Shown: piece by piece, positions 12,299 through 24,003 of the stretch
Layout: the number at the start of each line of letters is the position of its first letter
How positions within the stretch are numbered: position 1 is the first letter of the stretch
DNA from: a virus
Strand: one strand, 5' to 3'
DNA: 64,000 nucleotides
IMG/VR virus record: IMGVR_UViG_3300035698_029839
Location: 233,711 to 297,710 of that record
Notes under the pieces: model-generated
The model's input: only the letters and a program-made list of their open reading frames with translations
Told to the model about the DNA's origin: nothing
Databases searched by the model: none
Made by a program: the position numbers and the translations under genes

Positions 12299-12371
12299 TG
12301 TCCTTTAGTGTAATGGCTTAGCACGATTGCCTTTGACGCAATCAGTCGAAGTTCGAATCTTCGGAGGACAG
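12299..12371 (+). tRNA. tRNA-Gln(TTG)
   Basis: Acceptor TGTCCTT/GAGGACA, anticodon loop CTTTGAC, T-loop TTCGAAT. No encoded CCA, as for all the canonical tRNAs here. Confidence 0.92.
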
Positions 12372-12468
12372 CTATGAATAGGATAATGTATAAAAATAAA
12401 AAAAGGAGTATTCCCCTATTATCAGAATATATATAATATAAAGTACATTTTAATAATAGGAGATTGTA

Positions 12469-13182
12469 ATGAAACAAAAAACAGGGCCTAAAAGGACTAG
12501 TATTATATGGCAGATGTCAAAAAAAGATTTTACAGAAAATGTGAAAAAAAGTTCTACTTTTAAAGAGATATTAAAATATTTTGGATTAGAAAATAAAGGT
12601 AGCAATTACAAAACATTAAAAAAAAGATTAGAGGAAGAAAATATAAATTATTCTCATATTCCTACAGGAGTAGGATGTAACAAAGGAATGAAAATAAATA
12701 GAAAAGCTATCTCATTAGAAAAAGTAATGATAGAAAATTCTACTTATTGCAGGGGGACTCTTAAAAAAAGATTATTAAAGAATGGTATGTTAGAAAATAA
12801 ATGTATGATCTGTGATCAACTACCTGAACATAATGGGATTAAATTAGTAATGGTTTTAGATCATATTAATGGAACTCCTAATGATCATAGATTAGAAAAT
12901 TTAAGATTACTTTGTCCTAATTGCAATAGCCAACAATCAACTTTTGCTGGAAAAAGGCATAAAAAACATTATTATTGTGAAAAATGTGGGAATAAAAGAA
13001 AAAATAAACAAAGTAAATATTGTTTTAGTTGTTCTGTTAAATTAAATGGGCAAAATAGAAGAAAAGTTAAAAATAGACCATCTAAAGAAAAATTATTAAA
13101 AGAAATAAAAGAAACTAATTATTGTGCTGTTGGTAGAAAATATGATGTAAGTGATAGTGCTATTAGAAAATGGTTGAAATGA
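12469..13182 (+). CDS. HNH homing-type endonuclease
   Basis: 237 residues. An N-terminal DNA-binding-like repeat (about 14-65), then the HNH core: CMIC (110s), MVLDHINGTPNDHRLENLRLLCPNCNSQ with catalytic-type His and Asn and a second Cys pair, a CEKC/CFSC zinc ribbon, and a C-terminal helix-turn-helix (VGRKYDVSDSAIRKWLK). Free-standing homing endonucleases nick or cut specific DNA and spread by gene conversion. It lies between tRNA-Gln and tRNA-Asn and is a close paralogue of the gene at 15078. Confidence 0.9.
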   Translation: MKQKTGPKRTSIIWQMSKKDFTENVKKSSTFKEILKYFGLENKGSNYKTLKKRLEEENINYSHIPTGVGCNKGMKINRKAISLEKVMIENSTYCRGTLKKRLLKNGMLENKCMICDQLPEHNGIKLVMVLDHINGTPNDHRLENLRLLCPNCNSQQSTFAGKRHKKHYYCEKCGNKRKNKQSKYCFSCSVKLNGQNRRKVKNRPSKEKLLKEIKETNYCAVGRKYDVSDSAIRKWLK

Positions 13183-13184
13183 TA

Positions 13185-13260
13185 TTCCCATGTAACTCAA
13201 TTAGGCAGAGTGGCACGCTGTTAACGTGTTGGTTGTAGGTTCGATTCCTACCGTGGGAGT
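13185..13260 (+). tRNA. tRNA-Asn(GTT)
   Basis: Acceptor TTCCCAT/GTGGGAG, anticodon loop CTGTTAA, T-loop TTCGATT. Confidence 0.92.
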
Positions 13261-13328
13261 TCGATTCTTTGAAAAGTAAATAGGGGTTCCAAAAGGAACA
13301 CACATTGTGTTAAGTTTTAATTACTAAC

Positions 13329-13370
13329 ACATGGAGAGGTATAGCACTGAGTGGTATCTCTCCATGTTTT
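13329..13370 (+). terminator. Intrinsic terminator
   Basis: ACATGGAGAG/CTCTCCATGT stem with TTTT, just before tRNA-Ile. Alternatively a processing hairpin. Confidence 0.6.
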
Positions 13371-13371
13371 C

Positions 13372-13445
13372 TGACCTATAGCTTATGTGGGAAAAGCATT
13401 CGTCTTATAAGCGAAAGAGTCCAGGTTCGAATCCTGGTGGGTCAA
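13372..13445 (+). tRNA. tRNA-Ile(TAT)
   Basis: Acceptor TGACCTA/TGGGTCA, anticodon loop CTTATAA read as TAT (codon AUA), T-loop TTCGAAT. Reads AUA without the lysidine route used by CAU tRNAs. Confidence 0.9.
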
Positions 13446-13448
13446 TAT

Positions 13449-13521
13449 AGGCATAAAGCTCAGCAGGCAGAGCATCGTGCTGATATCACGAAGGCCGTTG
13501 GTTCGAATCCAGCTATGCCTA
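13449..13521 (+). tRNA. tRNA-Ile(GAT)
   Basis: Acceptor AGGCATA/TATGCCT, anticodon loop CTGATAT, T-loop TTCGAAT. Confidence 0.93.
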
Positions 13522-13589
13522 TTAGAAAGAGGAATTCTTCTTTTTTTCCCGAAATAATATAGAATAAAGGACAAAAGGGAGAATTCATC

Positions 13590-13808
13590 ATGAAAGAAGT
13601 CTTGATAGAATTAGTAAAAAGGGTAAGTAGGAAAGCAGTTATATTAGCAATAGCTATGGTGTTGGTATATATGGTTATTATAACACCGAATGCCGTAAAT
13701 GCAGTGATAGCTATAGGGGTGATTTCTGGTTTATCAATAGTAGGAGCAGGACTTCAATTTTATTTAGATCTTAAAAAGATCAAAGATGACGAAACAGATA
13801 AAATTTAA
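13590..13808 (+). CDS. Small membrane protein
   Basis: 72 residues, two transmembrane helices (about 17-34 and 38-58) and a charged C-terminus. The only membrane-protein gene inside the tRNA island; its stop runs into the Y-RNA-like gene. Ribosome site AAGGGAGA. Confidence 0.75.
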   Translation: MKEVLIELVKRVSRKAVILAIAMVLVYMVIITPNAVNAVIAIGVISGLSIVGAGLQFYLDLKKIKDDETDKI

Positions 13809-13953
13809 GCAGGTTGAATGTGAGTAAGTTATCGCTTATGGAGCCTGATGTGGATGGTTCGATTCCTCCTCTCTCGATTACAAATTGTTCGAGAGATAGC
13901 TTAACGGTAGAGCGCAGTAAAAACACTTATTCCTCCCACATATCTGCTTTTTT
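13807..13953 (+). ncRNA. Y-RNA-like RNA, copy A
   Basis: Closing stem AAGCAG...CTGCTTTTTT brings together GGTTGAATG, GTTATCG and ACATATC, the arrangement of the Ro60-binding stem in Y RNAs (established for the family; here by resemblance). Inside, a TTCGATT T-loop, a 7-bp CTCTCGA/TCGAGAG stem and a D-arm-like AGCTTAACGGTAGAGC follow in circularly permuted tRNA order. Ends in a T-run. Confidence 0.6.
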
Positions 13954-13960
13954 AAACTTA

Positions 13961-14053
13961 GAAATATGGTGATAGGGCCTACAAAGCTTGGGTCAGCCAA
14001 CTACCCTAGGGACGCAAGTCATTGGTCTGGGGTCGAGTCCCAGTCATATTTCT
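13961..14053 (+). tRNA. Type II tRNA-like gene, anticodon unclear
   Basis: Perfect acceptor GAAATAT/ATATTTC; T-arm CTGGG/CCCAG with loop GTCGAGT (first T changed); variable arm GAC-GCAA-GTC. The anticodon stem GGGT/ACCC has a 9-nt loop CAGCCAACT without a clear T33, so the identity cannot be assigned. May be non-functional in decoding. Confidence 0.6.
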
Positions 14054-14060
14054 CTTTTTT

Positions 14061-14134
14061 ACCCGCTTCGCTTAGTTGGCTAAAGCATCTGTCCTACAAA
14101 CAGAAGATCGTAGGTTCGAGTCCTATCGCGGGTA
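14061..14134 (+). tRNA. tRNA-Val(TAC)
   Basis: Acceptor ACCCGCT/CGCGGGT with a 7-66 mismatch; anticodon stem TCTGT/ACAGA, loop CCTACAA. Position 33 is C instead of T, so the call is less secure. Confidence 0.75.
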
Positions 14135-14136
14135 TT

Positions 14137-14263
14137 ACACAGGTTGATCGCATGAAGGTTATCGGATAAAACATTTTTTCTTCAAACAAAAAATGCAAGT
14201 AGGGTTCAAACCCTTACAACCCAGAAATGGGAAAATTCTTCTGCACTAACATATCTGTGTTTT
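14137..14263 (+). ncRNA. Y-RNA-like RNA, copy B
   Basis: Closing stem ACACAG/CTGTGTTTT around GGTTGATCG, GGTTATCGG and AACATATC. Internal T-arm GTAGGG-TTCAAAC-CCTTAC, a CATTTTTT/AAAAAATG hairpin and a CCC/GGG hairpin. Its T-run is directly followed by tRNA-Asp. Confidence 0.6.
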
Positions 14264-14334
14264 CCCCTATTGGTGTAATGGGAGCACGTGGCACTGTCGA
14301 TGCCAGGGCAGCAGATCGAAACTGCTATGGGGGG
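14264..14334 (+). tRNA. tRNA-Asp(GTC)
   Basis: Acceptor CCCCTAT/ATGGGGG, anticodon loop CTGTCGA, T-loop ATCGAAA (A54 instead of T). Confidence 0.88.
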
Positions 14335-14339
14335 TTTTT

Positions 14340-14421
14340 GAGAGTATTGAGCAATTGGTGGCTTATCTGGCTGTAACCCAGATTCTGAAAAGACTTGTAG
14401 GTTCGAATCCTTCTGCTCTCA
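14340..14421 (+). tRNA. tRNA-Tyr(GTA)
   Basis: Acceptor GAGAGTA/TGCTCTC, anticodon loop CTGTAAC, extended variable arm as expected for bacterial Tyr, T-loop TTCGAAT. Confidence 0.92.
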
Positions 14422-14466
14422 TTTGGAGTTACTATGAATAAGAATTCTAGAAACTTATTTTAGTAC

Positions 14467-14533
14467 TTTAGTCGTCTAAGGGCAAGGATACCTGTGCAAG
14501 CAGGAGATATGGTGTTCGAGTCGTCATCTAAAT
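14467..14533 (+). tRNA. Degenerate tRNA-like gene (GCA or TGC anticodon)
   Basis: 67 nt. D-arm GTCTAAGGGCAAGGAT and T-arm ATGGTG-TTCGAGT-CGTCAT are good, but the acceptor pairs only TTTAG/CTAAA and the anticodon stem CCTG/CAGG leaves a 6-nt loop TGCAAG. Its body resembles the CCA-encoding RNAs at 16466 and 16640. Confidence 0.5.
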
Positions 14534-14546
14534 ATTACTCCTAAAT

Positions 14547-14637
14547 GGTAAGTTGGCAGAGTCTGGCTTATTGCACTTGGTTGCTAACCAAGAGGGCCTT
14601 GAATAAGGTCCCATAGGTTCAAATCCTATACTTACCG
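14547..14637 (+). tRNA. tRNA-Ser(GCT)
   Basis: Acceptor GGTAAGT/ACTTACC, anticodon loop TTGCTAA, long variable arm, T-loop TTCAAAT. Confidence 0.92.
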
Positions 14638-14718
14638 TTAGTGTGGAAAGCCGCACACGTAGTTACTTCCTTTTCGAAGGAGCAGACTAGGCTTGACGAA
14701 GGGGAAGAGACTCCTAAC
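14637..14718 (+). ncRNA. Possible structured RNA between Ser tRNAs
   Basis: 82 nt closed by GTTAG/CTAAC, with GTGTGG-AAAG-CCGCACAC and CCTT-TTCG-AAGG hairpins. Not a tRNA. Could be a spacer that folds for processing. Confidence 0.3.
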
Positions 14719-14719
14719 T

Positions 14720-14806
14720 GGATGAGCAAGCAGATTGGTGACTGCACTGGTTTTGAAAACCAACGAGCCTTTAAAAGCCTTGAGAGTTCGATTCCCTCCT
14801 CATCCG
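14720..14806 (+). tRNA. tRNA-Ser(TGA)
   Basis: Acceptor GGATGAG/CTCATCC, anticodon loop TTTGAAA, long variable arm, T-loop TTCGATT. Confidence 0.92.
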
Positions 14807-14812
14807 CTTATT

Positions 14813-14885
14813 AGCGATATGGTGAAAATGGTAATCATAGATCCTTCATAAGGATCAGTTCCTGGTTCGATTCCAGATATCGCTA
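14813..14885 (+). tRNA. tRNA-Met(CAT), elongator type
   Basis: Acceptor AGCGATA/TATCGCT fully paired, anticodon loop TTCATAA, T-loop TTCGATT. Could be a lysidine Ile tRNA, but a TAT Ile tRNA is already present. Confidence 0.88.
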
Positions 14886-14893
14886 TTTATCAA

Positions 14894-14969
14894 CTGAACG
14901 TGGGGAAGTTTGGCCTAACCCGCCTGGTCTGGAGCCAGGAGAACGCTGGTTCAAATCCAGCCGTTCAGA
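14894..14969 (+). tRNA. tRNA-Pro(TGG), copy 1
   Basis: Acceptor CTGAACG/CGTTCAG, anticodon stem CCTGG/CCAGG, loop TCTGGAG (C33), T-loop TTCAAAT. Same body as the gene at 17380. Confidence 0.85.
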
Positions 14970-15077
14970 TTTTGTAACACCGAATAGAAAATAAGCAGTC
15001 AAGACATATGTTTTATTAAAGGAATCCTGTCTTTTATGTCGAATATATAGATATAAGTTATTTAGATAGGAGATAAA

Positions 15078-15767
15078 ATGAGAAAAAGAACAAGTGTTGT
15101 GTGGAAGATATCAATAGAAGAATTAAAAAAGATAGTAAAAAAGAATGATAGTTTTGCAAAAATTTTAAAACATTTTGGGATGGCAATAGCAAGTGGAAAC
15201 TATAAAACATTAAAAAAAAGATTAAATTATGAAAATATAAGTTATTCTCATATATCTCAAGGGCTTAATAATAATAAAGGAAGAAAATTTCCAGAAAGAG
15301 CTATTCCCTTAAAAGAAGTAATGGTAAAAAACTCTACCTATTGTAGGGGAACTCTTAAAAAAAGATTATTAAAAAAGGGTTTATTAGAAAATAAATGTAA
15401 TATTTGTGGACAAATTTCTGAACATAATAATATTAAGTTAATAATGGTTTTAGATCATATAAATGGAGTTTCTAATGATCATCGCGTAGAGAATTTAAGA
15501 TTGCTTTGTCCTAATTGTAATAGCCAACAAAAAACATTTGCGGGAAGAAATTCTGTAAGAAAAAAATATAACTGTATTACTTGTGGTAAAAAAATTACAA
15601 AACATTCAAAATTGTGTAAAAGTTGCAGTGCTAGATTGCAAAAAAGAAAAGTTAAAAATAGACCTTCAGTAGAACAATTATTAAAAGAAATAAAAGAAAC
15701 TAATTATTGTGTTGTTGGTAGGAAATATGAAGTAAGTGATAATGCAGTAAGAAAATGGTTAAAATAA
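15078..15767 (+). CDS. HNH homing-type endonuclease, paralogue of 12469
   Basis: 229 residues with the same order: N-terminal repeat, CNIC, MVLDHINGVSNDHRVENLRLLCPNCNSQ HNH core, CITC/CKSC zinc ribbon, and C-terminal helix-turn-helix VGRKYEVSDNAVRKWLK. Sits between tRNA-Pro and tRNA-Glu. Probably a duplicated mobile gene that exploits tRNA genes as target sites. Confidence 0.9.
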   Translation: MRKRTSVVWKISIEELKKIVKKNDSFAKILKHFGMAIASGNYKTLKKRLNYENISYSHISQGLNNNKGRKFPERAIPLKEVMVKNSTYCRGTLKKRLLKKGLLENKCNICGQISEHNNIKLIMVLDHINGVSNDHRVENLRLLCPNCNSQQKTFAGRNSVRKKYNCITCGKKITKHSKLCKSCSARLQKRKVKNRPSVEQLLKEIKETNYCVVGRKYEVSDNAVRKWLK

Positions 15768-15769
15768 AA

Positions 15770-15841
15770 GGCCCATTCTTCTAGTGGCTAGGATATCAGG
15801 GTTTCATCCTGAAAACAGCGGTCCGACTCCGCTATGGGCTA
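15770..15841 (+). tRNA. tRNA-Glu(TTC)
   Basis: Acceptor GGCCCAT/ATGGGCT, anticodon loop GTTTCAT, T-loop TCCGACT. Confidence 0.9.
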
Positions 15842-15887
15842 TTTAATCAAGGCAGAAACTGAGGGTTCGAGTCCCTTCCAGAGTATT
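15842..15887 (+). pseudogene. 3' tRNA fragment
   Basis: A T-arm GAGGG-TTCGAGT-CCCTT and an acceptor 3' strand with no matching 5' half. A tRNA relic between two Glu tRNAs. Confidence 0.6.
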
Positions 15888-15890
15888 CCT

Positions 15891-15962
15891 GCTCTTCTGG
15901 TGTAACGGTTAGCATCCGTGATTCTCAGTCACGAGATAGGGGTCCGACTCCCCTGAAGAGTA
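15891..15962 (+). tRNA. tRNA-Glu(CTC)
   Basis: Acceptor GCTCTTC/GAAGAGT, anticodon loop TTCTCAG, T-loop TCCGACT. Confidence 0.9.
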
Positions 15963-16030
15963 TTTTTCCTCTTATAAGTCCTTGTCTTTTATGGATTTAA
16001 AAAAATATTAAAAAAATTGGAAAAAAGTTA

Positions 16031-16059
16031 TTGAAAAGTGAAAGAAAATCCGATATAGT
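16031..16059 (+). promoter_or_regulatory. Sigma-70-like promoter with AGTGAAAG
   Basis: TTGAAA, 17-nt spacer starting AGTGAAAG, TATAGT; placed before the Y-RNA and tRNA-like cluster. Confidence 0.6.
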
Positions 16060-16115
16060 AATATCATCATAACGAAAGTTATGACTTCTTTTACAAGTTA
16101 ATAGAGAGAAAAAAG

Positions 16116-16189
16116 AAACGGGTTGAAGTCTAAAAGTTATCGATCCTTGAAAATCAAACACACTTTTTGACACACCATATCCGTTTTTT
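16116..16189 (+). ncRNA. Y-RNA-like RNA, copy C (minimal)
   Basis: About 74 nt. Closing stem AAACGG/CCGTTTTTT around GGTTGAAG, GTTATCG and ACACCATATC. It lacks the tRNA-like module, so it is close to a bare Ro60-stem RNA. Confidence 0.6.
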
Positions 16190-16202
16190 CTAAAATATGC
16201 AT

Positions 16203-16456
16203 GTGGGTTGATTGATATTGGTTATCGATAATTACTGTGAAAAAGTGCAAGTAAGGATCAAAAAAGAGATTTAGGTAAAGTTAGATTGAGATCACGCCAA
16301 TCAATAAATCTAATGGGAAGACTGAAGATCTTTAAGAGAACCTAGGTTGAAACATACTAAAGGCTTTGTACTGTAAATTTCCCAAAACTTTGTTTAGTCC
16401 TTAGATATCCATGAGATATAAAAAAGGACATCTCCAATTTCTCCAACATATCCACA
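16203..16456 (+). ncRNA. Y-RNA-like RNA, copy D (long)
   Basis: Closing stem TGTGG/CCACA around GGTTGATTG, GGTTATCG and CAACATATC, enclosing about 200 nt of extra sequence with an ATTAGATT/AATCTAAT pairing and a GTCCTT/AAGGAC hairpin. No T-run at the end; the tRNA-like gene at 16466 follows at once, suggesting a shared precursor. Confidence 0.5.
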
Positions 16457-16465
16457 GGCGTTTAT

Positions 16466-16537
16466 CTGAGGGTCGTCTAATCAGGATACCTCCTGTTAGG
16501 GGAGGAGATGTAGGTGTGACTCCTACTCCTTAGACCA
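16466..16537 (+). tRNA. Non-canonical tRNA-like RNA with encoded CCA (1)
   Basis: Acceptor CTGAGGG/TCCTTAG, then A and CCA. Anticodon stem CCTCC/GGAGG, loop TGTTAGG (TTA with G33). T-arm GTAGG/CCTAC but T-loop TGTGACT instead of TTCRANN, and the D-loop (TAATCAG) lacks the G18-G19 pair. Standard finders may miss it. If it decoded, TTA would read the stop codon UAA; a non-decoding role is equally likely. Confidence 0.6.
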
Positions 16538-16541
16538 TTTT

Positions 16542-16632
16542 GCTCGGTAGTTTAAATATAAAACAGTTGCTCTGTTAATCATTTATGATTGCTTGCAACA
16601 GATGGTAGGAGTGATGCCTACCCTGAACACCA
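16542..16632 (+). tRNA. Non-canonical tRNA-like RNA with encoded CCA (2)
   Basis: Ends AAC-A-CCA. T-arm GTAGG/CCTAC with loop AGTGATG. The anticodon stem GTTGC/GCAAC holds a 24-nt loop that contains an AATCA/TGATT hairpin. The acceptor has two mismatches. D-arm GTAGTTTAA is shared with the gene at 16912. Confidence 0.5.
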
Positions 16633-16639
16633 AAATTAT

Positions 16640-16709
16640 ATTAGAGTAGTCTAATCAAGATACCCCCGTTGAGGGGGAGATGTAGGTGTGACTCCTACCT
16701 CTAATGCCA
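16640..16709 (+). tRNA. Non-canonical tRNA-like RNA with encoded CCA (3)
   Basis: Perfect acceptor ATTAGAG/CTCTAAT, then G and CCA. Anticodon stem CCCC/GGGG with loop CGTTGAG (TTG, G33). T-arm GTAGG/CCTAC, T-loop TGTGACT; D-loop without GG. Close relative of the RNA at 16466. Confidence 0.6.
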
Positions 16710-16715
16710 ATATAT

Positions 16716-16895
16716 GTTAGGGTCTGCTCGAAAGAATTTATTCAGAGATGGGCTGTGAGCTATAAGTTTTGTTAAATGAGTTGGATGACTTGTTTAACGA
16801 AATGGGTTCGCAAAGTCAAAGAGGAAGTGTCTTACACATCCAAAGGTGAGCATGGATCAGAGACTTCGGAGGTTTGAATCCTCCCCCCAACACCA
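16716..16895 (+). tRNA. 180-nt tRNA-like RNA with encoded CCA
   Basis: Acceptor GTTAGGG/CCCCAAC (one mismatch), discriminator A, CCA. T-arm GGAGG-TTTGAAT-CCTCC is canonical. The D and anticodon parts are replaced by about 140 nt with its own GGATG/CATCC and GACTT/AAGTC stems. It does not resemble tmRNA: no pseudoknot set or tag frame evident. Confidence 0.5.
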
Positions 16896-16911
16896 ATTTT
16901 CATTTTTTTAC

Positions 16912-16997
16912 TGTTAGGTAGTTTAAGTAAAAAACAGTTATTAAGGCACACCCCTGTTTTGATAGCAGATGATAGGTGAGATACCTATCCCTTACAC
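16912..16997 (+). tRNA. Non-canonical tRNA-like RNA (4)
   Basis: Acceptor TGTTAGG/CCTTACA (one mismatch), T-arm ATAGG/CCTAT with loop TGAGATA, anticodon stem GTTAT/ATAGC with a 20-nt loop. Homologous to the RNA at 16542 but without a clear CCA. Confidence 0.45.
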
Positions 16998-17105
16998 ATT
17001 GGGTAGCTTATGGGTAAAGTTGGTTATTGAGTCGATTAAAGGTTTATAGTGCTTTTAGTCAATGCCTTAATAACAGAAGGATGGGTCCGATTCCCTCCCC
17101 CGATA
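16998..17105 (+). tRNA. tRNA-like RNA with expanded anticodon arm
   Basis: Acceptor ATTGGG/CCCGAT, T-loop TCCGATT, stem GTTATT/AATAAC holding a 40-nt loop with an internal TTAAAG/CTTTTA hairpin. Abuts the preceding RNA without a gap. Confidence 0.45.
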
Positions 17106-17135
17106 TTTTTCTCTCTATCAGTTTAAAAAAATAAT

Positions 17136-17209
17136 TGCGGAGTAGAGCAGTCTGGCAGCTTGTCAGCCTCATAAGCTGAAGGTCGGAGGTTCAAATCCTT
17201 CCTCCGCTA
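17136..17209 (+). tRNA. tRNA-fMet(CAT), initiator type
   Basis: Body matches bacterial initiator tRNA (D-arm GAGCAGTCTGGCAGCTTGTC, T-loop TTCAAAT), with a 1-72 mismatch (T-T), a known initiator feature. The anticodon stem TCAGC/GCTGA lacks the three G-C pairs usual in initiators. Confidence 0.85.
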
Positions 17210-17211
17210 TT

Positions 17212-17349
17212 GAAGTAAGTGGTTGTTGATATTCGTCAGATAAGGCAAATTCTAATTTTTCTCATGTCAAAAATAAGAGGCCTTTGTTATAATTCAAACA
17301 TGATTGGATTATGATGATTCGGAATATTGACTGGCCAGCCACTTACTTC
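17212..17349 (+). ncRNA. Unassigned structured RNA, 138 nt
   Basis: Perfect 11-bp closing stem GAAGTAAGTGG/CCACTTACTTC, inner AAGGC/GCCTT pairing. No reading frame and no tRNA features. Unknown class. Confidence 0.5.
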
Positions 17350-17379
17350 TTCATTTTTCTTACACCGAATCATTATTTC

Positions 17380-17454
17380 CTGAACGTGGGAAAGCTTGGC
17401 CTAATCCGCGAGCTTTGGAAGCTCGAGACGCCAGTTCAAATCTGGCCGTTCTGA
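17380..17454 (+). tRNA. tRNA-Pro(TGG), copy 2
   Basis: Acceptor CTGAACG/CGTTCTG (one mismatch), anticodon loop TTTGGAA, T-loop TTCAAAT. Duplicate of the gene at 14894. Confidence 0.87.
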
Positions 17455-17457
17455 TAA

Positions 17458-17531
17458 CTCTCAGTGGGAAAGCTTGGTATTCCGTCTGGTTTGGGACCAG
17501 AAGATCAGAGGTTCGAATCCTCTCTGAGAGA
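17458..17531 (+). tRNA. tRNA-Pro(TGG), copy 3
   Basis: Acceptor CTCTCAG/CTGAGAG, anticodon loop TTTGGGA, T-loop TTCGAAT. Different body from copies 1 and 2. Confidence 0.87.
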
Positions 17532-17540
17532 TTAACCAAA

Positions 17541-17676
17541 GTGGGTTGATAGATAGTAGGTTATCGCTTATAACGAAGTGGTTGTGAGTTCGAGTCTCAC
17601 CGCGGAGGCAACTCTGTGTAGCTCAATGGCAGAGCACTAAAAATTCTATTGTCGCTAACACATCCACGGTTTTTTT
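17541..17676 (+). ncRNA. Y-RNA-like RNA, copy E with clear tRNA mimic
   Basis: Closing stem GTGG/CCAC around GGTTGATAG, GGTTATCG and AACACATC, ending in a T-run. Inside, in order: T-arm GTGAG-TTCGAGT-CTCAC; strand CGCGGAG; a GCAA tetraloop; strand CTCTGTG (7-bp acceptor-like helix); T; D-arm AGCTCAATGGCAGAGC. That is a circularly permuted tRNA with the acceptor end closed by a GNRA loop. Confidence 0.65.
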
Positions 17677-17700
17677 AATAGTATAGCACTGAATAGTGTT

Positions 17701-17771
17701 GGGGGTATCGTCCAACGGGAAGACATCTGGTTTGCAACCAGAAAATAAGAGTTCGATTCTCTTTACCTCCA
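17701..17771 (+). tRNA. tRNA-Ala(TGC), copy 1
   Basis: Acceptor GGGGGTA/TACCTCC with the G3-U70 pair that marks Ala tRNAs; anticodon loop TTTGCAA; T-loop TTCGATT. Confidence 0.9.
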
Positions 17772-17778
17772 TTCTCTT

Positions 17779-17852
17779 GGGGACGCATGTGCCAAGGGTG
17801 GCGAGAGACCTTTGCAAGGTATCTGTGGTCAGTTCGATTCTGATCGTCTCCA
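17779..17852 (+). tRNA. tRNA-Ala(TGC), copy 2
   Basis: Acceptor GGGGACG/CGTCTCC with G3-U70; anticodon loop TTTGCAA; T-loop TTCGATT. Anticodon stem has one mismatch. Confidence 0.85.
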
Positions 17853-17854
17853 TT

Positions 17855-17966
17855 AAACAGGTTGATTGGTTAAAAGTTATCGATAAGTTCGACTCTTATT
17901 CTCCCCTTCTTTCATGGGGAGAAATGGCCTGGGGCCACCTTTTCTCCTACCACACATCTGTTTTTT
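17855..17966 (+). ncRNA. Y-RNA-like RNA, copy F
   Basis: Closing stem AAACAG/CTGTTTTTT around GGTTGATTG, GTTATCG and CACACATC. T-arm ATAAG-TTCGACT-CTTAT, then stem TCTCCCC/GGGGAGA and TGGCC..GGCCA hairpin. Terminator-like T-run. Confidence 0.62.
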
Positions 17967-18041
17967 ATAAAAAAAGGAAATTCTAAGTATATGTCGAAAT
18001 AGTAAGTAGTAAGCTATTTAACAATTACTTAGGATTTCAAT

Positions 18042-18449
18042 ATGAACTATAAGACAGGAAAATATGCAAAGAAAAAATGTATTGGATGTGGATTAAAAAC
18101 ATTAAACATAAAATTTTGTAGTAATAAATGCCAGCAATTATATTTTTGGGAAAAAAGAAAAAAAGAGATAAAAAAAACAGGAGAGATCCCAGAAAGAAGA
18201 GTTGGTATACGATATCTTAAAGAGGTCAGGGGAGATAAATGTGAGATATGTGATCTTAAAGAATGGAATGGAAAAGATATTACTATGATCATGGATCATA
18301 TCGATGGAGACTCATTAAATAATAAAGATCTAAATCTTAGATTGATTTGTCCTAACTGTGACTCTCAGTTATCAACCTATAAAAATAGGAATAAAGGTAA
18401 TGGTAGACATTCAAGAAGAGTAAGATATGCAGAAGGTAAAAGTTATTAA
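18042..18449 (+). CDS. HNH endonuclease, short form
   Basis: 135 residues. N-terminal zinc ribbon (CIGC...CSNKC), then CEIC, MIMDHIDGDSLNNKDLNLRLICPNCDSQ HNH core. No C-terminal helix-turn-helix. In the tRNA array between Y-RNA copy F and tRNA-Thr. Confidence 0.88.
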   Translation: MNYKTGKYAKKKCIGCGLKTLNIKFCSNKCQQLYFWEKRKKEIKKTGEIPERRVGIRYLKEVRGDKCEICDLKEWNGKDITMIMDHIDGDSLNNKDLNLRLICPNCDSQLSTYKNRNKGNGRHSRRVRYAEGKSY

Positions 18450-18450
18450 T

Positions 18451-18523
18451 GCTGGTGTAGCTCAATTGGCAGAGCGCCTCATTTGTAATGAGGATGTTGT
18501 GGGTTCGACTCCTATCACCAGCT
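18451..18523 (+). tRNA. tRNA-Thr(TGT)
   Basis: Acceptor GCTGGTG/CACCAGC, anticodon loop TTTGTAA, T-loop TTCGACT. Confidence 0.93.
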
Positions 18524-18528
18524 TTAAA

Positions 18529-18600
18529 GGTGCGATAGCTGAGGCGGTTTAGCGCGAGACTGAAAATCTTGAGACGGAGGTTCGAGTCCTCTTCGTACCA
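18529..18600 (+). tRNA. tRNA-Phe(GAA)
   Basis: Acceptor GGTGCGA/TCGTACC, anticodon loop CTGAAAA, T-loop TTCGAGT. Confidence 0.93.
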
Positions 18601-18614
18601 CTTTGTAGCACTGA

Positions 18615-18687
18615 GGGCCTGTAGCTCAATTGGCAGAGCGCCAAGCTCATAACTTGTGGATTGTAGGTTCGAGTCCTTCCTGGCCCA
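18615..18687 (+). tRNA. tRNA-Met(CAT) or Ile(CAU lysidine)
   Basis: Acceptor GGGCCTG/CTGGCCC with one T-T mismatch, anticodon loop CTCATAA, T-loop TTCGAGT. Second elongator-type CAT tRNA; could be the lysidine type. Confidence 0.85.
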
Positions 18688-18714
18688 TTAATAATTTTTT
18701 TTAGGAGAAAGATC

Positions 18715-18750
18715 ATGAAACGTAAGAAAGAAAAATCTGGTAAAATGTAG
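18715..18750 (+). CDS. Possible 11-aa basic peptide in the tRNA array
   Basis: MKRKKEKSGKM with a strong TTAGGAGAAAG site; its stop codon overlaps the first base of tRNA-Lys. Could be a translated leader or chance. Confidence 0.3.
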   Translation: MKRKKEKSGKM

Positions 18751-18824
18751 GGTGTGAAGCTTATTCTGGTAAAGCACGCGACTTTTAATCGCGAGTCTTG
18801 GGAGTTCGAATCTCCCTACACCCA
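18750..18824 (+). tRNA. tRNA-Lys(TTT)
   Basis: Acceptor GGGTGTG/TACACCC, anticodon loop CTTTTAA, T-loop TTCGAAT. Confidence 0.93.
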
Positions 18825-18829
18825 TTAGT

Positions 18830-18903
18830 GCCTTTGAAGCTTATTTGGCAAAGCACCTGGTTCTTACCCAGGAGTCTTGAGCGTTCGAATCGCTCCAGAG
18901 GCA
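18830..18903 (+). tRNA. tRNA-Lys(CTT)
   Basis: Acceptor GCCTTTG/CAGAGGC, anticodon loop TTCTTAC, T-loop TTCGAAT. Confidence 0.92.
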
Positions 18904-18909
18904 TTTCCT

Positions 18910-18982
18910 GTCAGAGGTGATGTAATTGGCAGCATATCAGACTGTGAATCTGAGTGAGCGAGTTCAAATCTCGTCCTTTGAC
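18910..18982 (+). tRNA. tRNA-His(GTG)
   Basis: Acceptor TCAGAGG/CCTTTGA with an extra 5' G facing discriminator C, the His identity feature. Anticodon loop CTGTGAA, T-loop TTCAAAT. Confidence 0.92.
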
Positions 18983-19068
18983 CTTTTAAAAGGATTTGAA
19001 AATAAATAAAGGATTCAGATCCCTATTTTAGAATATAAGGTATAAACTATTTTTTTTGGAGAATAGAA

Positions 19069-19398
19069 ATGCCTTATAAAAATAAAGAAGATCAGTTAGA
19101 ATGTCAGAGAAGGTACTATCGTAATCATAGAAAAACTATGATCGAAAGAACCAATAAAAGAGCCAAAGAAATACGAAAATGGTGGAAAGAGTATAAAAAA
19201 ACACAAAAATGTGAAAAATGTGGAGAAAATCACCCAGCTTGTATTTGTTTTCATCATAGAGATCCAGAAGAAAAAGATATAGATCTATCCACTGCCGTTA
19301 CTCATAATCATTGGGGAGAAAAGAGAATAAAAAAAGAGTTATTAAAATGTGATGTTATTTGTTCTAATTGTCATCTTAAAATTCATTGGAATGATTAA
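19069..19398 (+). CDS. HNH-type zinc nuclease, single unit
   Basis: 109 residues: basic helical N-terminus, CEKCGE, CFHHRDPEEKD, CDVICSNCHLKIH. The same unit occurs twice in tandem in the gene at 51303. Between tRNA-His and tRNA-Cys. Confidence 0.85.
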   Translation: MPYKNKEDQLECQRRYYRNHRKTMIERTNKRAKEIRKWWKEYKKTQKCEKCGENHPACICFHHRDPEEKDIDLSTAVTHNHWGEKRIKKELLKCDVICSNCHLKIHWND

Positions 19399-19404
19399 TT
19401 TTTC

Positions 19405-19475
19405 GCTCGGGTGGTCTAATGGAATGATGACAGATTGCAAATCTGTAGGCGAGAGTTCGATTCTCTCCCTGAGCT
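19405..19475 (+). tRNA. tRNA-Cys(GCA)
   Basis: Acceptor GCTCGGG/CCTGAGC, anticodon loop TTGCAAA, T-loop TTCGATT. Confidence 0.92.
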
Positions 19476-19476
19476 T

Positions 19477-19512
19477 TTCCAGACAAGTGGTTTTTTATTA
19501 TTATTAAGTATA
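19477..19512 (+). promoter_or_regulatory. CCAGACAA element upstream of 19544
   Basis: Copy directly after tRNA-Cys; starts the small gene run 19544-20556. Confidence 0.6.
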
Positions 19513-19543
19513 AATATTAATTTTTGGTAAAAAGGATTAAAAG

Positions 19544-19711
19544 ATGGTAAAATATGTATTAACTGAAGAACAAGAAAAGAAGTTAAACGATGCAGATCTT
19601 GGACAATGGAAGAAACTAAATAATAAGGGTCAACAAGCTATTAAACAGAGAATGGCGATTGCTGACAGAATTGGACTAAAATTATCTGAAATAAAAAGAA
19701 TAGATTTATGA
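19544..19711 (+). CDS. 55-aa helical protein
   Basis: Ribosome site AAAGGAT. Charged, helical. Ends KRIDL; ATGA overlap with the next gene. Confidence 0.65.
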   Translation: MVKYVLTEEQEKKLNDADLGQWKKLNNKGQQAIKQRMAIADRIGLKLSEIKRIDL

Positions 19712-19920
19712 AGAAATCAGATGAAGACAGTTGTAGTGGTTTTAAAAGAGGATGGACTTCTGATCATGAAGAGTGCATAACATGTAAGAAGAATAGTCCT
19801 GCCAGATATAAAAAGTGCATGCAAGCAGTTAAAAAGTCGTTAAAAGAGAACTTTAGCACCGATGAAGAGATAGAGAAGTGGAAAAAAAAGAAAGTGAGAA
19901 ATGAAGATGAAAAGCTATAA
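19708..19920 (+). CDS. 70-aa Cys-containing basic protein
   Basis: Four Cys (CSGF, CITC, KCM) and a lysine-rich C-terminus. Coupled to both neighbours by overlap. Not recognised. Confidence 0.7.
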   Translation: MKKSDEDSCSGFKRGWTSDHEECITCKKNSPARYKKCMQAVKKSLKENFSTDEEIEKWKKKKVRNEDEKL

Positions 19921-20164
19921 ATCGATACCTGTCGAAGTAGAAGCAATTCAATTTTTCGATACTAAAGAAAGTTTTGATGAAACTAAAGAGATTTTTGGAG
20001 AAAGATTATCTTCTAGTCTCCGAAATTTTCCTAGAGCTTTTTTTAGAGTAGAAAATGGGAAAACTGTCCCTTTATATAATAATTCATGGATCGTGAAAAA
20101 AGATAATAAATTAGAGATTTTGGATGATGAAACATTTAAAAAAACATATGAAGAGAAAGGGTAA
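19901..20164 (+). CDS. Phage protein of the PVEVEAIQF family
   Basis: 87 residues. IPVEVEAIQF near the start and NSWIVKKDN..EILDDETFKKTYEE near the end match a common small phage family whose members end ..GDYI...G......P..F..TYE. Function unknown. Confidence 0.75.
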   Translation: MKMKSYKSIPVEVEAIQFFDTKESFDETKEIFGERLSSSLRNFPRAFFRVENGKTVPLYNNSWIVKKDNKLEILDDETFKKTYEEKG

Positions 20165-20167
20165 AAA

Positions 20168-20356
20168 ATGGTATTTTTTAAAAGGTATAAAATAAATGGG
20201 ATGTTATTGTTTTGGAACATTTGGTTATGGGCTATTCTTTTCATAACAGGATGTAGCACTGTCAAAACTCCTCCTTGGAGTGAGAATGAAGTTTCAAGAA
20301 TGTCTGAAGTAGGACAAAATAAAACAGTTCCTATAGTTTTAATAAAGGTAGATTGA
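20168..20356 (+). CDS. Small lipoprotein
   Basis: 62 residues. Basic N-terminus, hydrophobic helix and lipobox ITGC (Cys about residue 37); the mature part is about 26 residues. Length and lipobox would suit an outer-membrane spanin subunit, but no partner is next to it. Inference. Confidence 0.65.
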   Translation: MVFFKRYKINGMLLFWNIWLWAILFITGCSTVKTPPWSENEVSRMSEVGQNKTVPIVLIKVD

Positions 20357-20556
20357 TGGATATATCTAAAATATTTTGTTTTTTAGGACTTCATGACTGG
20401 TATTATGGAAATTTCCAGACAGGAGAGATGTCAAAATGGACAGGAGATCATGTTGGAGTTAGAGGAAGATCCTGTGTAAATTGTAATAAAAACCAAATAA
20501 AGAAAAAGAAGAAATATGTAACTGTTGATAGTTTTGAAAAACAATCAAATGAATAA
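20353..20556 (+). CDS. Small Cys-containing phage protein
   Basis: 67 residues: CFLGLHDWYYG then RSCVNCNKNQ, a pattern seen in small phage zinc-ribbon proteins. Overlaps the lipoprotein stop by 4 nt. Confidence 0.7.
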   Translation: MMDISKIFCFLGLHDWYYGNFQTGEMSKWTGDHVGVRGRSCVNCNKNQIKKKKKYVTVDSFEKQSNE

Positions 20557-20587
20557 GCGGGTGTGGTATAATGGCAAAATGCAAGGT
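20557..20587 (+). pseudogene. 5' half of a tRNA-Gly, truncated by an HNH gene
   Basis: GCGGGTG, D-arm TGGTATAATGGCAAAATGC and the first anticodon stem bases are present, then the sequence passes into the stop codon of the - strand HNH gene. No 3' half is found on the far side. Confidence 0.65.
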
Positions 20588-21250
20588 TTATATATTTAAA
20601 AATCCATGATCTAAATCCCAGTGATGATTGGGACAAAGAAACATTAAATTTTTAATATCATTAACAACTTTTAATTTTGTGTTTTTGTTAAATTGATTAA
20701 TAGCTTTAATATGACACAAATCTAATTTGTTATTATATGAACAAAGTGGACATTTATTTGGTTTAAGATTATAAAATTTTGCTATTTGATGAGCATGATT
20801 TCTGATGGATTGATATTTGTGTCTTGCATAGGTAGATGTAAAATCTTTAATATATTTCTCTCCATATTGTTCTATTCTGTTAAGAGTAAGACATTTTTGA
20901 CAATAATGGGTTTTTGATTGAGTTAGATTTTGACATCTTAAACATTTTCTTTTAGGGCGTTTTGGAAAAAGACTATTATTTGTTTTTGCAGCACAGGATC
21001 TAGAACAGTATTTAGGGTTTTTAGTTTTTGTTCCACAAGTAAAACAATTAATTATAGGTCTATTAGGAGCTTTTATTTTTATTATTTCTCCAAAACATTC
21101 TTTTAAAGCATTATTCCATGATCCGAATCTTTTGCTTACAGTCCATTTATCAAAAGATCCATATTTATTATAATCATTTAATGATGGAATTTTTTTTATT
21201 TTAATTTTAACTCTTTTAAGGTCTTCTATAAGTTTATTAGTTGTTATCAT
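20588..21250 (-). CDS. HNH endonuclease with N-terminal DNA-binding repeat
   Basis: 220 residues. N-terminal helix-rich repeat (KIPSLNDYNKYGSFDKWTVSKRFGSWNNALKEC), typical of homing nucleases, two zinc ribbons (CFTCGTK..CSRSC, CLRC..CQKC), then CPLC..LDLCHIKAIN and FLCPNHHWDLDHG HNH residues. Opposite strand to the tRNAs; its 3' end cuts into the tRNA-Gly remnant. Confidence 0.88.
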   Translation of the reverse strand: MITTNKLIEDLKRVKIKIKKIPSLNDYNKYGSFDKWTVSKRFGSWNNALKECFGEIIKIKAPNRPIINCFTCGTKTKNPKYCSRSCAAKTNNSLFPKRPKRKCLRCQNLTQSKTHYCQKCLTLNRIEQYGEKYIKDFTSTYARHKYQSIRNHAHQIAKFYNLKPNKCPLCSYNNKLDLCHIKAINQFNKNTKLKVVNDIKNLMFLCPNHHWDLDHGFLNI

Positions 21251-21273
21251 TATTACTCCTATAGTTTATTTAT

Positions 21274-21346
21274 GGGAATGAAACTCAATTGGACGAGTCT
21301 CACACTTCCACTGTGGGTGTTGCGAGTTCGAATCTCGTCATTCCCT
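21274..21346 (+). tRNA. tRNA-Gly(TCC)
   Basis: Acceptor GGGAATG/CATTCCC, anticodon loop CTTCCAC, T-loop TTCGAAT. Confidence 0.92.
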
Positions 21347-21438
21347 TTACTTATATTTCGGCATAAATGATTTGAATTCCTTTATTTTTATGGAAAAATA
21401 ATAAATTCATTTTCGAAAATGGATAAAATAAATTTAAT

Positions 21439-21510
21439 GCGAAATTGGTGTTAATGATAGCACATATGCTTGCCGAGCATAAGGTAAGAGTTTGAATCTC
21501 TTATTTCGCT
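21439..21510 (+). tRNA. tRNA-Gly(GCC)
   Basis: Acceptor GCGAAAT/ATTTCGC, anticodon loop TTGCCGA, T-loop TTTGAAT. Confidence 0.9.
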
Positions 21511-21515
21511 TTCAA

Positions 21516-21588
21516 GCCCCTGTACCAGAATTGGCATATGGACTGCGTTTAGACCGCAGGGATGGAGGTTCGAGTCCTCTCGGGGGCA
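21516..21588 (+). tRNA. tRNA-Leu(TAG), class I shape
   Basis: Acceptor GCCCCTG/CGGGGGC, anticodon loop TTTAGAC, T-loop TTCGAGT. Variable loop only about 4 nt, whereas bacterial Leu tRNAs have a long variable arm. Confidence 0.85.
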
Positions 21589-21592
21589 TTAT

Positions 21593-21628
21593 TTCCAGAC
21601 AAGTGGTTTTTTAATATTATATGATGTT
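21593..21628 (+). promoter_or_regulatory. CCAGACAA element upstream of 21650
   Basis: Copy of the element just after tRNA-Leu. Confidence 0.6.
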
Positions 21629-21649
21629 AACTATGTAAAAGAGGTAATC

Positions 21650-22030
21650 ATGAAACGTGTACTAACAATGGATGATATTAGAAAAGGGATGTATGTTACT
21701 GTTCTTCAAGGTAAGATAGAGCAGAAAGTAATCCCTACTCTTAATGGTCCTAGAATCGTTGATAAAGAAAATGATTATTGGAACGGAAAAATTTTAGAAG
21801 TTACTGCTGTTGATATGCCTTATATTGTAGTTAAACTCCATACAAACATGAGTTGTTCTACATATTCTCTTGATGTTAGGATTGTCCAGTTTATGCTTCT
21901 TTCTCCAGAATATATTAAAGCTTGTTGTCCTGATATAAAGATTTCTAAAGATCTTTTTTGGAAGGATATTAAAGATGATTCTATAAAGAATGTTAATACT
22001 ACTATTGAAGAGATTTTTAAGGATCTCTAA
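21650..22030 (+). CDS. Hypothetical protein, 126 aa
   Basis: Beta-rich N-terminal half of SH3-like composition (KGMYVTVLQGKI..GKILEVTAVDMPYIVVKL). Ribosome site AAGAGGTAATC. Not recognised. Confidence 0.8.
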   Translation: MKRVLTMDDIRKGMYVTVLQGKIEQKVIPTLNGPRIVDKENDYWNGKILEVTAVDMPYIVVKLHTNMSCSTYSLDVRIVQFMLLSPEYIKACCPDIKISKDLFWKDIKDDSIKNVNTTIEEIFKDL

Positions 22031-22040
22031 CACTGATTTT

Positions 22041-22199
22041 ATGGATATAGAATTACAACAATTAAAAGATGAATTAAGCGTGGTCTCTATGAGATTAGTT
22101 TATGTAACTGAAGATATTTCTATTAAAATGGCTGAAGGGGACAAATTAAATCAAAGAAAAATTGATTTAGTTGAAAAAATAATGAAATTAGAAGATTAA
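22041..22199 (+). CDS. 52-aa coiled-coil protein
   Basis: MDIELQQLKDELSVV..., heptad-like helix. Start set at the ATG 10 nt after the previous stop. Confidence 0.6.
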   Translation: MDIELQQLKDELSVVSMRLVYVTEDISIKMAEGDKLNQRKIDLVEKIMKLED

Positions 22200-22209
22200 C
22201 AAAGATAAA

Positions 22210-22283
22210 GCACCTGTAGTCTAATTGGAGAGGCACTGCGCTTCTAACGCAGATACATGCGGGTTCGAGTCCTGCCAGGTGTA
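22210..22283 (+). tRNA. tRNA-Arg(TCT)
   Basis: Acceptor GCACCTG/CAGGTGT, anticodon loop CTTCTAA, T-loop TTCGAGT. Confidence 0.92.
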
Positions 22284-22288
22284 ATCAA

Positions 22289-22363
22289 GCTCCCGAAGCT
22301 TAAATGGATAAGCATCTCTCTCCTAAAGAGAAGTTTTTGTAGGTTCGAGTCCTATCGGGAGTA
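22289..22363 (+). tRNA. tRNA-Arg(CCT)
   Basis: Acceptor GCTCCCG/CGGGAGT, anticodon stem TCTCT/AGAGA with loop CTCCTAA, T-loop TTCGAGT. Confidence 0.88.
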
Positions 22364-22368
22364 TTAAA

Positions 22369-22441
22369 GCCCCTATAGTATAATCGAATAGAACATCGGC
22401 CTACGAAGCCGAAGATGGGAGTTTGAGTCTTCCTAGGGGCA
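22369..22441 (+). tRNA. tRNA-Arg(ACG)
   Basis: Acceptor GCCCCTA/TAGGGGC, anticodon loop CTACGAA, T-loop TTTGAGT. A34 would need inosine modification by a host TadA. Confidence 0.9.
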
Positions 22442-23074
22442 TTATATTAGTTTTTTAATAATGTTTTTTATATCATTAAAAGCTTGTTTTAGTATTTTGT
22501 CATTAGATACTAAATCTGGAATAACTATTAAGTTGATGTTTTTGTTAGTTGCTATTTTAGTTTTTTTAGAGTCTATGTTTTGTATTTTATTTAATTTAGT
22601 TTGACCATAGATAGGTTTGAAATGAACTATACCATTCCATTCAATAGCCAATTTAAGACTAGGGATAGCAACATCTGTTTCTAATCCATTTAACATAATT
22701 TTATCGTTAGCTAAAATAGTTAAATTAGGAAATTCTTTTACAAGTAAATTGTAAAATTTAGTTTCTATTTTAGATCTACGAGATTTCCTTTTTAATTTGT
22801 TATTATAAGTGGCAGCGCAAGATTTAGAACAAAAAGATTTACCTGATTTAGATTTTTTTATTTCTGATGGAAGAGTTGTTATTTTTTTATTACAAGATCC
22901 ACAAAAGGTTTTTACGAGGTTTATTTGTTTTTTATGATTATTAAAGCATTTTCTATTGCAAAAAGTGTGTTTATATCTATAACTATATTTTCTTATATTG
23001 CGAGTATGATCAGCTAAAATTCTTTCAAATAATTTTTTACAGTAGTAACATTTTAATTTAATAACTTTTCGCAT
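22442..23074 (-). CDS. Vsr/DUF559-like endonuclease with zinc ribbons
   Basis: 210 residues. Three N-terminal Cys clusters, then SKIETKFYNLL...ETDVAIPSLKLAIEWNGIVHFKPIYGQ..LNKIQNIDSKKTKIATNKNINLIVI, the E..D..E.NG.HH core of very-short-patch-repair/DUF559 restriction-like nucleases. In phages such genes are free-standing homing nucleases. Ends exactly at the 3' end of tRNA-Arg(ACG). Confidence 0.85.
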   Translation of the reverse strand: MRKVIKLKCYYCKKLFERILADHTRNIRKYSYRYKHTFCNRKCFNNHKKQINLVKTFCGSCNKKITTLPSEIKKSKSGKSFCSKSCAATYNNKLKRKSRRSKIETKFYNLLVKEFPNLTILANDKIMLNGLETDVAIPSLKLAIEWNGIVHFKPIYGQTKLNKIQNIDSKKTKIATNKNINLIVIPDLVSNDKILKQAFNDIKNIIKKLI

Positions 23075-23173
23075 AGTTTATATCCTGAATTTATTTTTCT
23101 TATTATTTATATATTCTATTAAAAAATCTTAAATCCTTTTTATTTTTTTTCGAGTCCTGAGTGGGACGTTAAT

Positions 23174-23245
23174 AGGTCGGTGGTGTAATGGCTAGCATAT
23201 TGGTCTCCAAAACCGAAGATTAGGGTTCGACTCCCTACCTTCCTG
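23174..23245 (+). tRNA. tRNA-Trp(CCA)
   Basis: Anticodon stem TTGGT/ACCGA, loop CTCCAAA, T-loop TTCGACT. Acceptor AGGTCGG/CCTTCCT has two mismatches. Confidence 0.82.
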
Positions 23246-23249
23246 TTTA

Positions 23250-23282
23250 TTCCAGACAACTGGTTTTTCGTAATGATAGAAT
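23250..23282 (+). promoter_or_regulatory. CCAGACAA element
   Basis: Copy between tRNA-Trp and the sigma-70-like promoter at 23336; no gene starts directly after it. Confidence 0.5.
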
Positions 23283-23335
23283 AAGAGTAGTTAAAAGAGG
23301 TAGTTTGACATTTCTTTCACTTTTTTATTTTTCTC

Positions 23336-23364
23336 TTGAAAGTGAAAGGGTGCTGCCATATAAT
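23336..23364 (+). promoter_or_regulatory. Promoter for the RNA genes at 23372
   Basis: TTGAAA, 17-nt spacer starting GTGAAAGG, TATAAT. The tRNA-like RNA begins 8 nt further on. Confidence 0.7.
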
Positions 23365-23371
23365 AGATGAT

Positions 23372-23513: not shown

Positions 23514-23528
23514 TTATAAGTTAAATAA

Positions 23529-23677: not shown

Positions 23678-23681
23678 ATAT

Positions 23682-23754: not shown

Positions 23755-23784
23755 TTACGGTTTTTTAAATGTAAGGAGTAAGAA

Positions 23785-23997: not shown

Positions 23998-24003
23998 AGA
24001 TAA

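What the first reader, a model, noticed from the sequence alone, without database searches (positions are those of the whole stretch)
13807..17966. Six Y-RNA-like noncoding RNAs inside a phage tRNA array
Six stretches (13807, 14137, 16116, 16203, 17541, 17855) share one plan: a 4-6 bp closing stem, GGTTGA at the 5' side, GTTATCG about 15-20 nt later, ACAYATC or close variant at the 3' side, and in five of six no coding content; four end in a clear T-run. The closing stem sequences differ but keep pairing (AAGCAG/CTGCTT, ACACAG/CTGTGT, AACGG/CCGTT, TGTGG/CCACA, GTGG/CCAC, AAACAG/CTGTTT), which is covariation. Known Y RNAs bind Ro60 with such a stem and have been reported in bacteria and phages; six in one array is unusual.
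Basis: partly seen in the sequence, partly recalled or inferred. Interest (0 to 1): 0.92.

Follow-up and report, generated by a model that had tools for sequence, protein, structure and literature searches.

The report
Six Y RNAs matched to phage Ro60
A giant bacterial virus carries, among its transfer-RNA genes, six small non-coding RNAs of the Y RNA type together with its own copy of Ro60, the ring-shaped protein that holds such RNAs, and a base in the RNAs and a residue in the protein appear to have changed together.

Summary
All six elements are at the stated coordinates; their 5' motif is absent from 300 shuffles of the region. The window is the last 64 kb of a 297,710-bp virus record that encodes a full-length Ro60 (TROVE plus vWA_Ro60), 52 kb upstream. 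Sister records keep the RNAs: six in the same order plus a seventh in G001, two in G003. The closing-stem pairs are preserved through two-sided changes. E1 and E5 carry the circularly permuted T-arm/acceptor/D-arm module of YrlA; E6 lacks a standard D-arm, E2 is reduced, E3 has no module, E4 is large. The same RNA plan lies beside ro genes in bacteria (47 hits in 24 of 80 loci, control 0) and in Ro+ actinophages. Phage Y RNAs are already reported, so the kind is known. New here: position 4 of GGYYGA is U in all 15 RNAs of this clade but C elsewhere, and Ro60 residue 187 (Xenopus numbering) is Arg instead of His. Lys-type bacteria also pair with U (7/7), His-type with C (100/100). Function is inferred; no transcription or binding data.

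The parts
13807..13949 (+). E1, Y RNA with permuted tRNA-like module (weak T-arm, 7-bp acceptor, D-arm); closing stem AAGCAG/CTGCTT, then T-run
   Evidence: partial RF02553 match; orthologue in G001
14137..14260 (+). E2, Y RNA with reduced tRNA-like module (T-arm and short hairpin, no D-arm); closing stem ACACAG/CTGTGT
   Evidence: orthologue in G001
16116..16186 (+). E3, short Y RNA without a tRNA-like module; closing stem AACGG/CCGTT, then T-run
   Evidence: orthologues in G001 and G003 with changed but paired stems
16202..16456 (+). E4, large (255 nt) Y-type RNA with a conserved non-tRNA-like insert; closing stem TGTGG/CCACA, no T-run
   Evidence: orthologue in G001 with conserved core
17541..17667 (+). 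E5, Y RNA with full permuted tRNA-like module (T-arm 5/5, acceptor 7/7, D-arm 4/4); closing stem GTGG/CCAC, then T-run
   Evidence: RF02553 37.2 bits; fold z -2.87; orthologues in G001 and G003
17855..17963 (+). E6, Y RNA with T-arm and acceptor of the tRNA-like module and a plain hairpin in the D-arm place; closing stem AAACAG/CTGTTT, then T-run
   Evidence: orthologue in G001 with a D-arm
12299..24076 (+). tRNA array that houses the six RNAs (33 ARAGORN tRNAs, several HNH genes)

Best explanation
The six elements are Y RNAs of a virus-encoded Ro60 ribonucleoprotein. Each closes on itself with a short helix; GGUUGA on the 5' strand and CAYAUC on the 3' strand form the conserved end that the phage's Ro60 ring binds. 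The other end is an exchangeable module: in E1, E5 and most of E6 a circularly permuted tRNA mimic without anticodon arm, in E2 a remnant, in E3 none, in E4 a large unknown domain. Shown by comparison: RNA family membership, the Ro60 gene, the conserved pairing. Inferred: Ro60 binds the helix; the modules tether or gate Ro60 towards enzymes that handle tRNA-like or structured RNA (host PNPase, as in the Deinococcus RYPER complex, or the phage's own RNA ligases), so that damaged RNA, most likely tRNA cut during infection, is sorted for decay or repair. The co-change of Ro60 residue 187 (His to Arg) with RNA base 4 (C to U) suggests that this pair helps set the specificity and could keep the phage RNP apart from a host Ro60 system.
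For: Ro60 in the same record, TROVE 99-107 bits and vWA_Ro60 207 bits; full-length match to Xenopus Ro60 1yvp, E 3.5e-114. RNAs conserved in G001 (7) and G003 (2). Closing stem: the three innermost pairs pair in 15/15 with two-sided changes; 0 of 20,000 shuffles reach the observed pairing. tRNA-like module: acceptor 49/49, D 24/24, T 33/35 pairs; T-arm abuts the acceptor with 0 nt, acceptor to D-arm 2 nt, as in tRNA. Same plan at bacterial ro genes, 47 hits, control 0, and in Ro+ actinophages; none in the 595-kb LR756511.1, which has a tRNA array but no Ro60 match. Residue 187 versus base 4 without exception: H-C 100, K-U 7, R-U 15; the R and K clades with RNAs are separate on the tree; two further phages, G006 (sister of the R clade) and G007, are H with C. 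RNA ligase of T4 Rnl1 type 3 kb downstream of ro. YrlA as circularly permuted tRNA: PMC11472068; RYPER: PMC8394870.
Against: No transcript or binding data. Rfam YrlA stays below its gathering score. The ro gene is 52 kb away, not adjacent as in bacteria. No PNPase (PF01138) and no RtcB (PF01139) was found in G000, G001 or G003, so a RYPER-like complex would need host PNPase. Three Ro60-bearing contigs of the clade (G002, G004, G005) show no GGTTGA motif, though they are fragments. The residue 187/base 4 rule rests on two lineage-level switches with RNAs found; for four of seven Lys-type genomes no matching RNA was located.
Confidence: 0.9

Rival explanations
1. The tRNA-like Y RNAs are decoys: their elbow (T-arm, D-arm, acceptor) occupies host or rival tRNA-targeting nucleases or tRNA-binding enzymes, with Ro60 as stabiliser. 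They lack an anticodon arm, so anticodon nucleases could bind but not cut.
For: Module lacks an anticodon arm; an array of 33 tRNAs and an Rnl1-type ligase near ro fit a phage that faces tRNA cleavage. A competitive-inhibitor role for YrlA is proposed in PMC7790460.
Against: E2, E3 and E4 have no complete tRNA-like module, so this cannot be the role of all six; no nuclease target is known.
Confidence: 0.3
2. Decayed or recombined tRNA genes: parts of tRNAs in a degenerate array that only look like Y RNAs.
For: They lie between tRNAs, and several tRNA-like pieces in the array are not called by ARAGORN.
Against: Ro-end motif invariant in 15 elements of three phages, compensatory changes, same plan beside bacterial ro genes with control 0. 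E3 has no tRNA part.
Confidence: 0.03
3. Structured RNAs of another kind (for example tmRNA or permuted tmRNA pieces, or mobile-element RNAs).
For: Weak sub-threshold matches to tmRNA families through the T-arm.
Against: A true tmRNA lies elsewhere in the genome; Ro60 and the Y plan co-occur, and the plan is that of RNAs beside bacterial ro genes.
Confidence: 0.02

Closest known systems
YrlA and other bacterial Y RNAs (Rfam RF02553; Salmonella YrlA structure 6CU1)
   Same: Base helix formed by the two ends, conserved Ro end, circularly permuted tRNA-like module (T-arm, acceptor, D-arm), several per Ro60 system
   Different: Base 4 is U not C; below the Rfam gathering score; in a tRNA array 52 kb from ro; six in one array, one of them large with an unknown domain
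Y RNAs and Ro-like proteins of actinophages (Myrna, I3, Karp, FuzzBuster, Cashline)
   Same: Ro60 plus 1-4 RNAs of the same plan, often near tRNA genes
   Different: They have C at base 4 and His at residue 187; fewer RNAs found; Ro60 only 36-41% identical
RYPER (Rsr, Y RNA, PNPase of Deinococcus radiodurans)
   Same: Ro60 orthologue plus Y RNA as tether
   Different: No PNPase gene found in the phage; tether partner unknown
rsr-yrlBA-rtcBA RNA repair operon of Salmonella
   Same: Ro60, Y RNAs and RNA ligation linked
   Different: No RtcB found; the phage has two other RNA ligases, one 3 kb from ro; not one operon

Membership tests
Bacterial/phage Y RNA | Encoded with a Ro60 orthologue in the same genome | tested here: met
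   also G001, G003
Bacterial/phage Y RNA | 5' and 3' ends form a helix with conserved Ro-end nucleotides | tested here: met
   15/15 GGUUGA and CAYAUC with paired closing stem; same plan at 24 bacterial ro loci
Bacterial/phage Y RNA | Helix preserved by compensatory change | tested here: met
Bacterial/phage Y RNA | Physical binding by Ro60 | not testable with these tools
   only indirect: residue 187/base 4 co-change
YrlA (RF02553) | Circularly permuted tRNA-like module | tested here: met
   E1 and E5 full, E6 without standard D-arm; E2 partial; E3 and E4 do not have it
YrlA (RF02553) | Score at or above the Rfam gathering threshold (69) | tested here: not met
   best 37.2 bits; no Ro+ phage record of 15 passed it either
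YrlA (RF02553) | Pseudouridine/dihydrouridine modification by tRNA enzymes | not testable with these tools
   needs RNA; feature taken from PMC8394870
Ro60 protein | TROVE ring plus vWA domain with MIDAS | tested here: met
   PF05731 and PF25045; DVSGSM, T482, D506 conserved; K170 and R174 equivalents in 97/97
Ro60 protein | His187 (H187S mutant lacks Y RNA binding, PMC11277228) | tested here: not met
   Arg in all six clade members; Lys in 7 of 80 bacterial Ro60s, so the feature is common but not universal
RYPER | PNPase partner | tested here: inconclusive
   no PF01138 in G000, G001, G003; host PNPase possible

The most novel reading that the evidence does not exclude
Ro60 residue 187 and base 4 of the Y RNA form a specificity pair that has switched independently at least twice (His/C to Arg/U in this phage clade, to Lys/U in Desulfonema and Thiotrichaceae), giving the giant phage a Ro60-Y RNA system insulated from that of its host, with a set of six to seven Y RNAs as exchangeable adaptors.
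Probability: 0.45. Interest if true: 0.75.

Novelty: new variant of a known kind. Interest (0 to 1): 0.6.

Why it matters
What Y RNAs do in phages is unknown. This phage gives a set of six natural variants with one shared Ro60 end and different far ends, so the role of each end can be separated. The residue 187/base 4 rule, if true, gives a direct test of which Y RNA belongs to which Ro60. The RNAs are missed by the Rfam YrlA threshold and were not listed in the six GenBank phage records I opened at length, so phage Y RNAs are probably under-annotated.

Tried and rejected
Rfam at gathering score gave only tRNAs. The seventh pattern hit at 37822 was rejected. I first thought the Ro end differed from known Y RNAs because it does not resemble the Rfam consensus; the scan of actinophages and bacterial ro loci showed that it is the general motif, with only base 4 changed. 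A relaxed search for classical Y RNAs in the seven Lys-type genomes found none; RNAs with another order of parts were then found in three of them. Rival readings as decayed tRNAs or tmRNA pieces were rejected. A short motif ahead of some HNH genes was not significant in the window.

Full report
Setting. The window is bases 233,711-297,710 of a 297,710-bp virus record. The six elements lie in a tRNA array with 33 ARAGORN tRNAs and several HNH endonuclease genes.

The observation. The 5' motif GGTTGA-N-GTTATCG has 0 matches in 300 dinucleotide shuffles of the region against 6 observed. With the 3' motif and a complementary stem required, the whole 64-kb window yields exactly these six and its reversal none. 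The seventh match of the loose pattern, at 37822, has no 3' motif with a fitting stem.

Relatives. A Ro60 (TROVE) search of the record rings at 195,082-196,116; the frame has 575 aa. Related Ro60 genes led to further virus records: G001 (350,866 bp, Ro60 84% identical), G003 (547,943 bp, 73%), and fragments. G001 has six RNAs in the same order and similar spacing plus a seventh elsewhere; G003 has two. Fragments G002, G004 and G005 have none. The seventh of G001 lies directly upstream of an unidentified conserved RNA that precedes a tmRNA.

Structure. Over 15 elements, GGUUG pairs with CA-AUC around a bulged pyrimidine, and the three innermost closing pairs are kept in 15/15 with two pair types each. 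Shuffling the 3' stems among elements never reaches the observed 57/60 (0 of 20,000). Related sequences are not independent, so this is not a p-value. Single folds agree (E5 z -2.87).

tRNA-like module. In E1, E5 and E6 and their orthologues the acceptor pairs 49/49, the D-arm 24/24 (E6 of the window has no standard D-arm and is left out), the T-arm 33/35, with tRNA spacing but in circularly permuted order and without an anticodon arm. I set these segments by eye, which favours pairing. This is the arrangement published for bacterial Y RNA 6CU1 (PMC11472068). E5 matches Rfam YrlA at 37.2 bits, below the gathering score of 69.

Is it the Y RNA family? In 80 bacterial Ro60 loci the same plan gives 47 hits in 24 loci, all on the ro strand and all within about 0.7 kb upstream of ro; the reversed control over 1.36 Mb (both strands) gives 0. 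Ro+ actinophages carry 1-4 in the regions scanned (Sixama gave 0 under this scan although it has the best Rfam YrlA hit). LR756511.1, a 595-kb phage with a tRNA array, has neither a Ro60 match nor the 5' pattern, a single case. That Y RNAs occur in phages is reported (Chen et al. 2014 and Sim and Wolin 2018, known to me only from memory and through the citation in PMC7765460). Ro-like proteins occur in 349 of 50,697 phage records, and jumbo phages with TROVE proteins are noted in PMC7824862.

Protein-RNA co-change. Aligning 97 Ro60s, the position of Xenopus His187 is His in 84, Lys in 7 bacteria and Arg in the six members of this phage clade; Lys170 and Arg174 are invariant. The H187S mutant lacks Y RNA binding in mouse cells (PMC11277228). 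Base 4 of GGYYGA is C in 100/100 RNAs of His-type bacteria and U in 7/7 of Lys-type bacteria (three genomes), C in all actinophage hits, U in all 15 of this clade. The scans allowed C or T at base 4. The 15 elements of this clade were first collected with a GGTTGA pattern, but the scan of the window with GGYYGR found the same six and none with C. The Lys-type genomes were examined after the phage pattern had been seen, so they are a modest test of a prediction. On the tree the Arg clade's sister is a His-type phage (G006), which has GGCCGA upstream of its ro gene, and the Lys clade with RNAs lies elsewhere, so two independent switches are likely. Counts of RNAs overstate independence; the lineage count is two.

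Function. Ro60 binding, tethering and RNA sorting are inferred from known systems (PMC8394870, PMC7790460, PMC4726728). The phage has two RNA ligases, one of T4 Rnl1 type 3 kb downstream of ro, with ADP-ribosylglycohydrolase and metallophosphoesterase genes further on, and no PNPase or RtcB match. This fits tRNA repair or sorting during infection better than a self-sufficient degradation machine. My confidence of 0.9 is for 'Y RNAs of the phage Ro60'; for the specific role in tRNA repair or decay I would say about 0.4.

Limits. The three main records are uncultivated virus contigs with no completeness estimate. No expression data were available. The main papers on bacterial Y RNAs were not in the library, so I cannot exclude that the residue 187/base 4 rule or the non-permuted Y RNAs are already described.

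Noticed in passing
L322:2990-3122 (Desulfonema magnum), also L327 and L328: Y-type RNAs in ordinary tRNA order: acceptor, D-arm, then the Ro-binding stem-loop in place of the anticodon arm, then T-arm, acceptor and CCA (fold); a possible non-permuted counterpart of YrlA. Similar candidates in Kofleriaceae loci (L341, L348, L363).
   Followed up: partly
G000:177,330-177,679 (L263:5331-5680): Phage-encoded tmRNA (tag DTSYAKAA), conserved in G001, G003 and G005.
   Followed up: partly
L263:4904-5170; L261:960-1190; L275 about 2120-1880 (-): Conserved RNA-like stretch of about 270 nt just upstream of the tmRNA in G000, G001 and G003, with no Rfam match.
   Followed up: no
L261:747-958 (G001): Seventh Y-type RNA of G001, about 212 nt, with a large non-tRNA-like domain, outside the tRNA array.
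   Followed up: partly
window 16463-17110: Several tRNA-like sequences not called by ARAGORN, some with TTA or TTG in the anticodon loop and G at position 33; Myrna has an annotated 'tRNA Sup TTA'.
   Followed up: no
window 12469-13182, 15078-15767, 18042-18449, 19069-19398, 20588-21250: Five HNH endonuclease-like genes scattered in the tRNA array, absent or different at some orthologous sites in G001 and G003.
   Followed up: no
L264:8133-9029: LAGLIDADG homing endonuclease-like gene between ro and the Rnl1-type RNA ligase.
   Followed up: no
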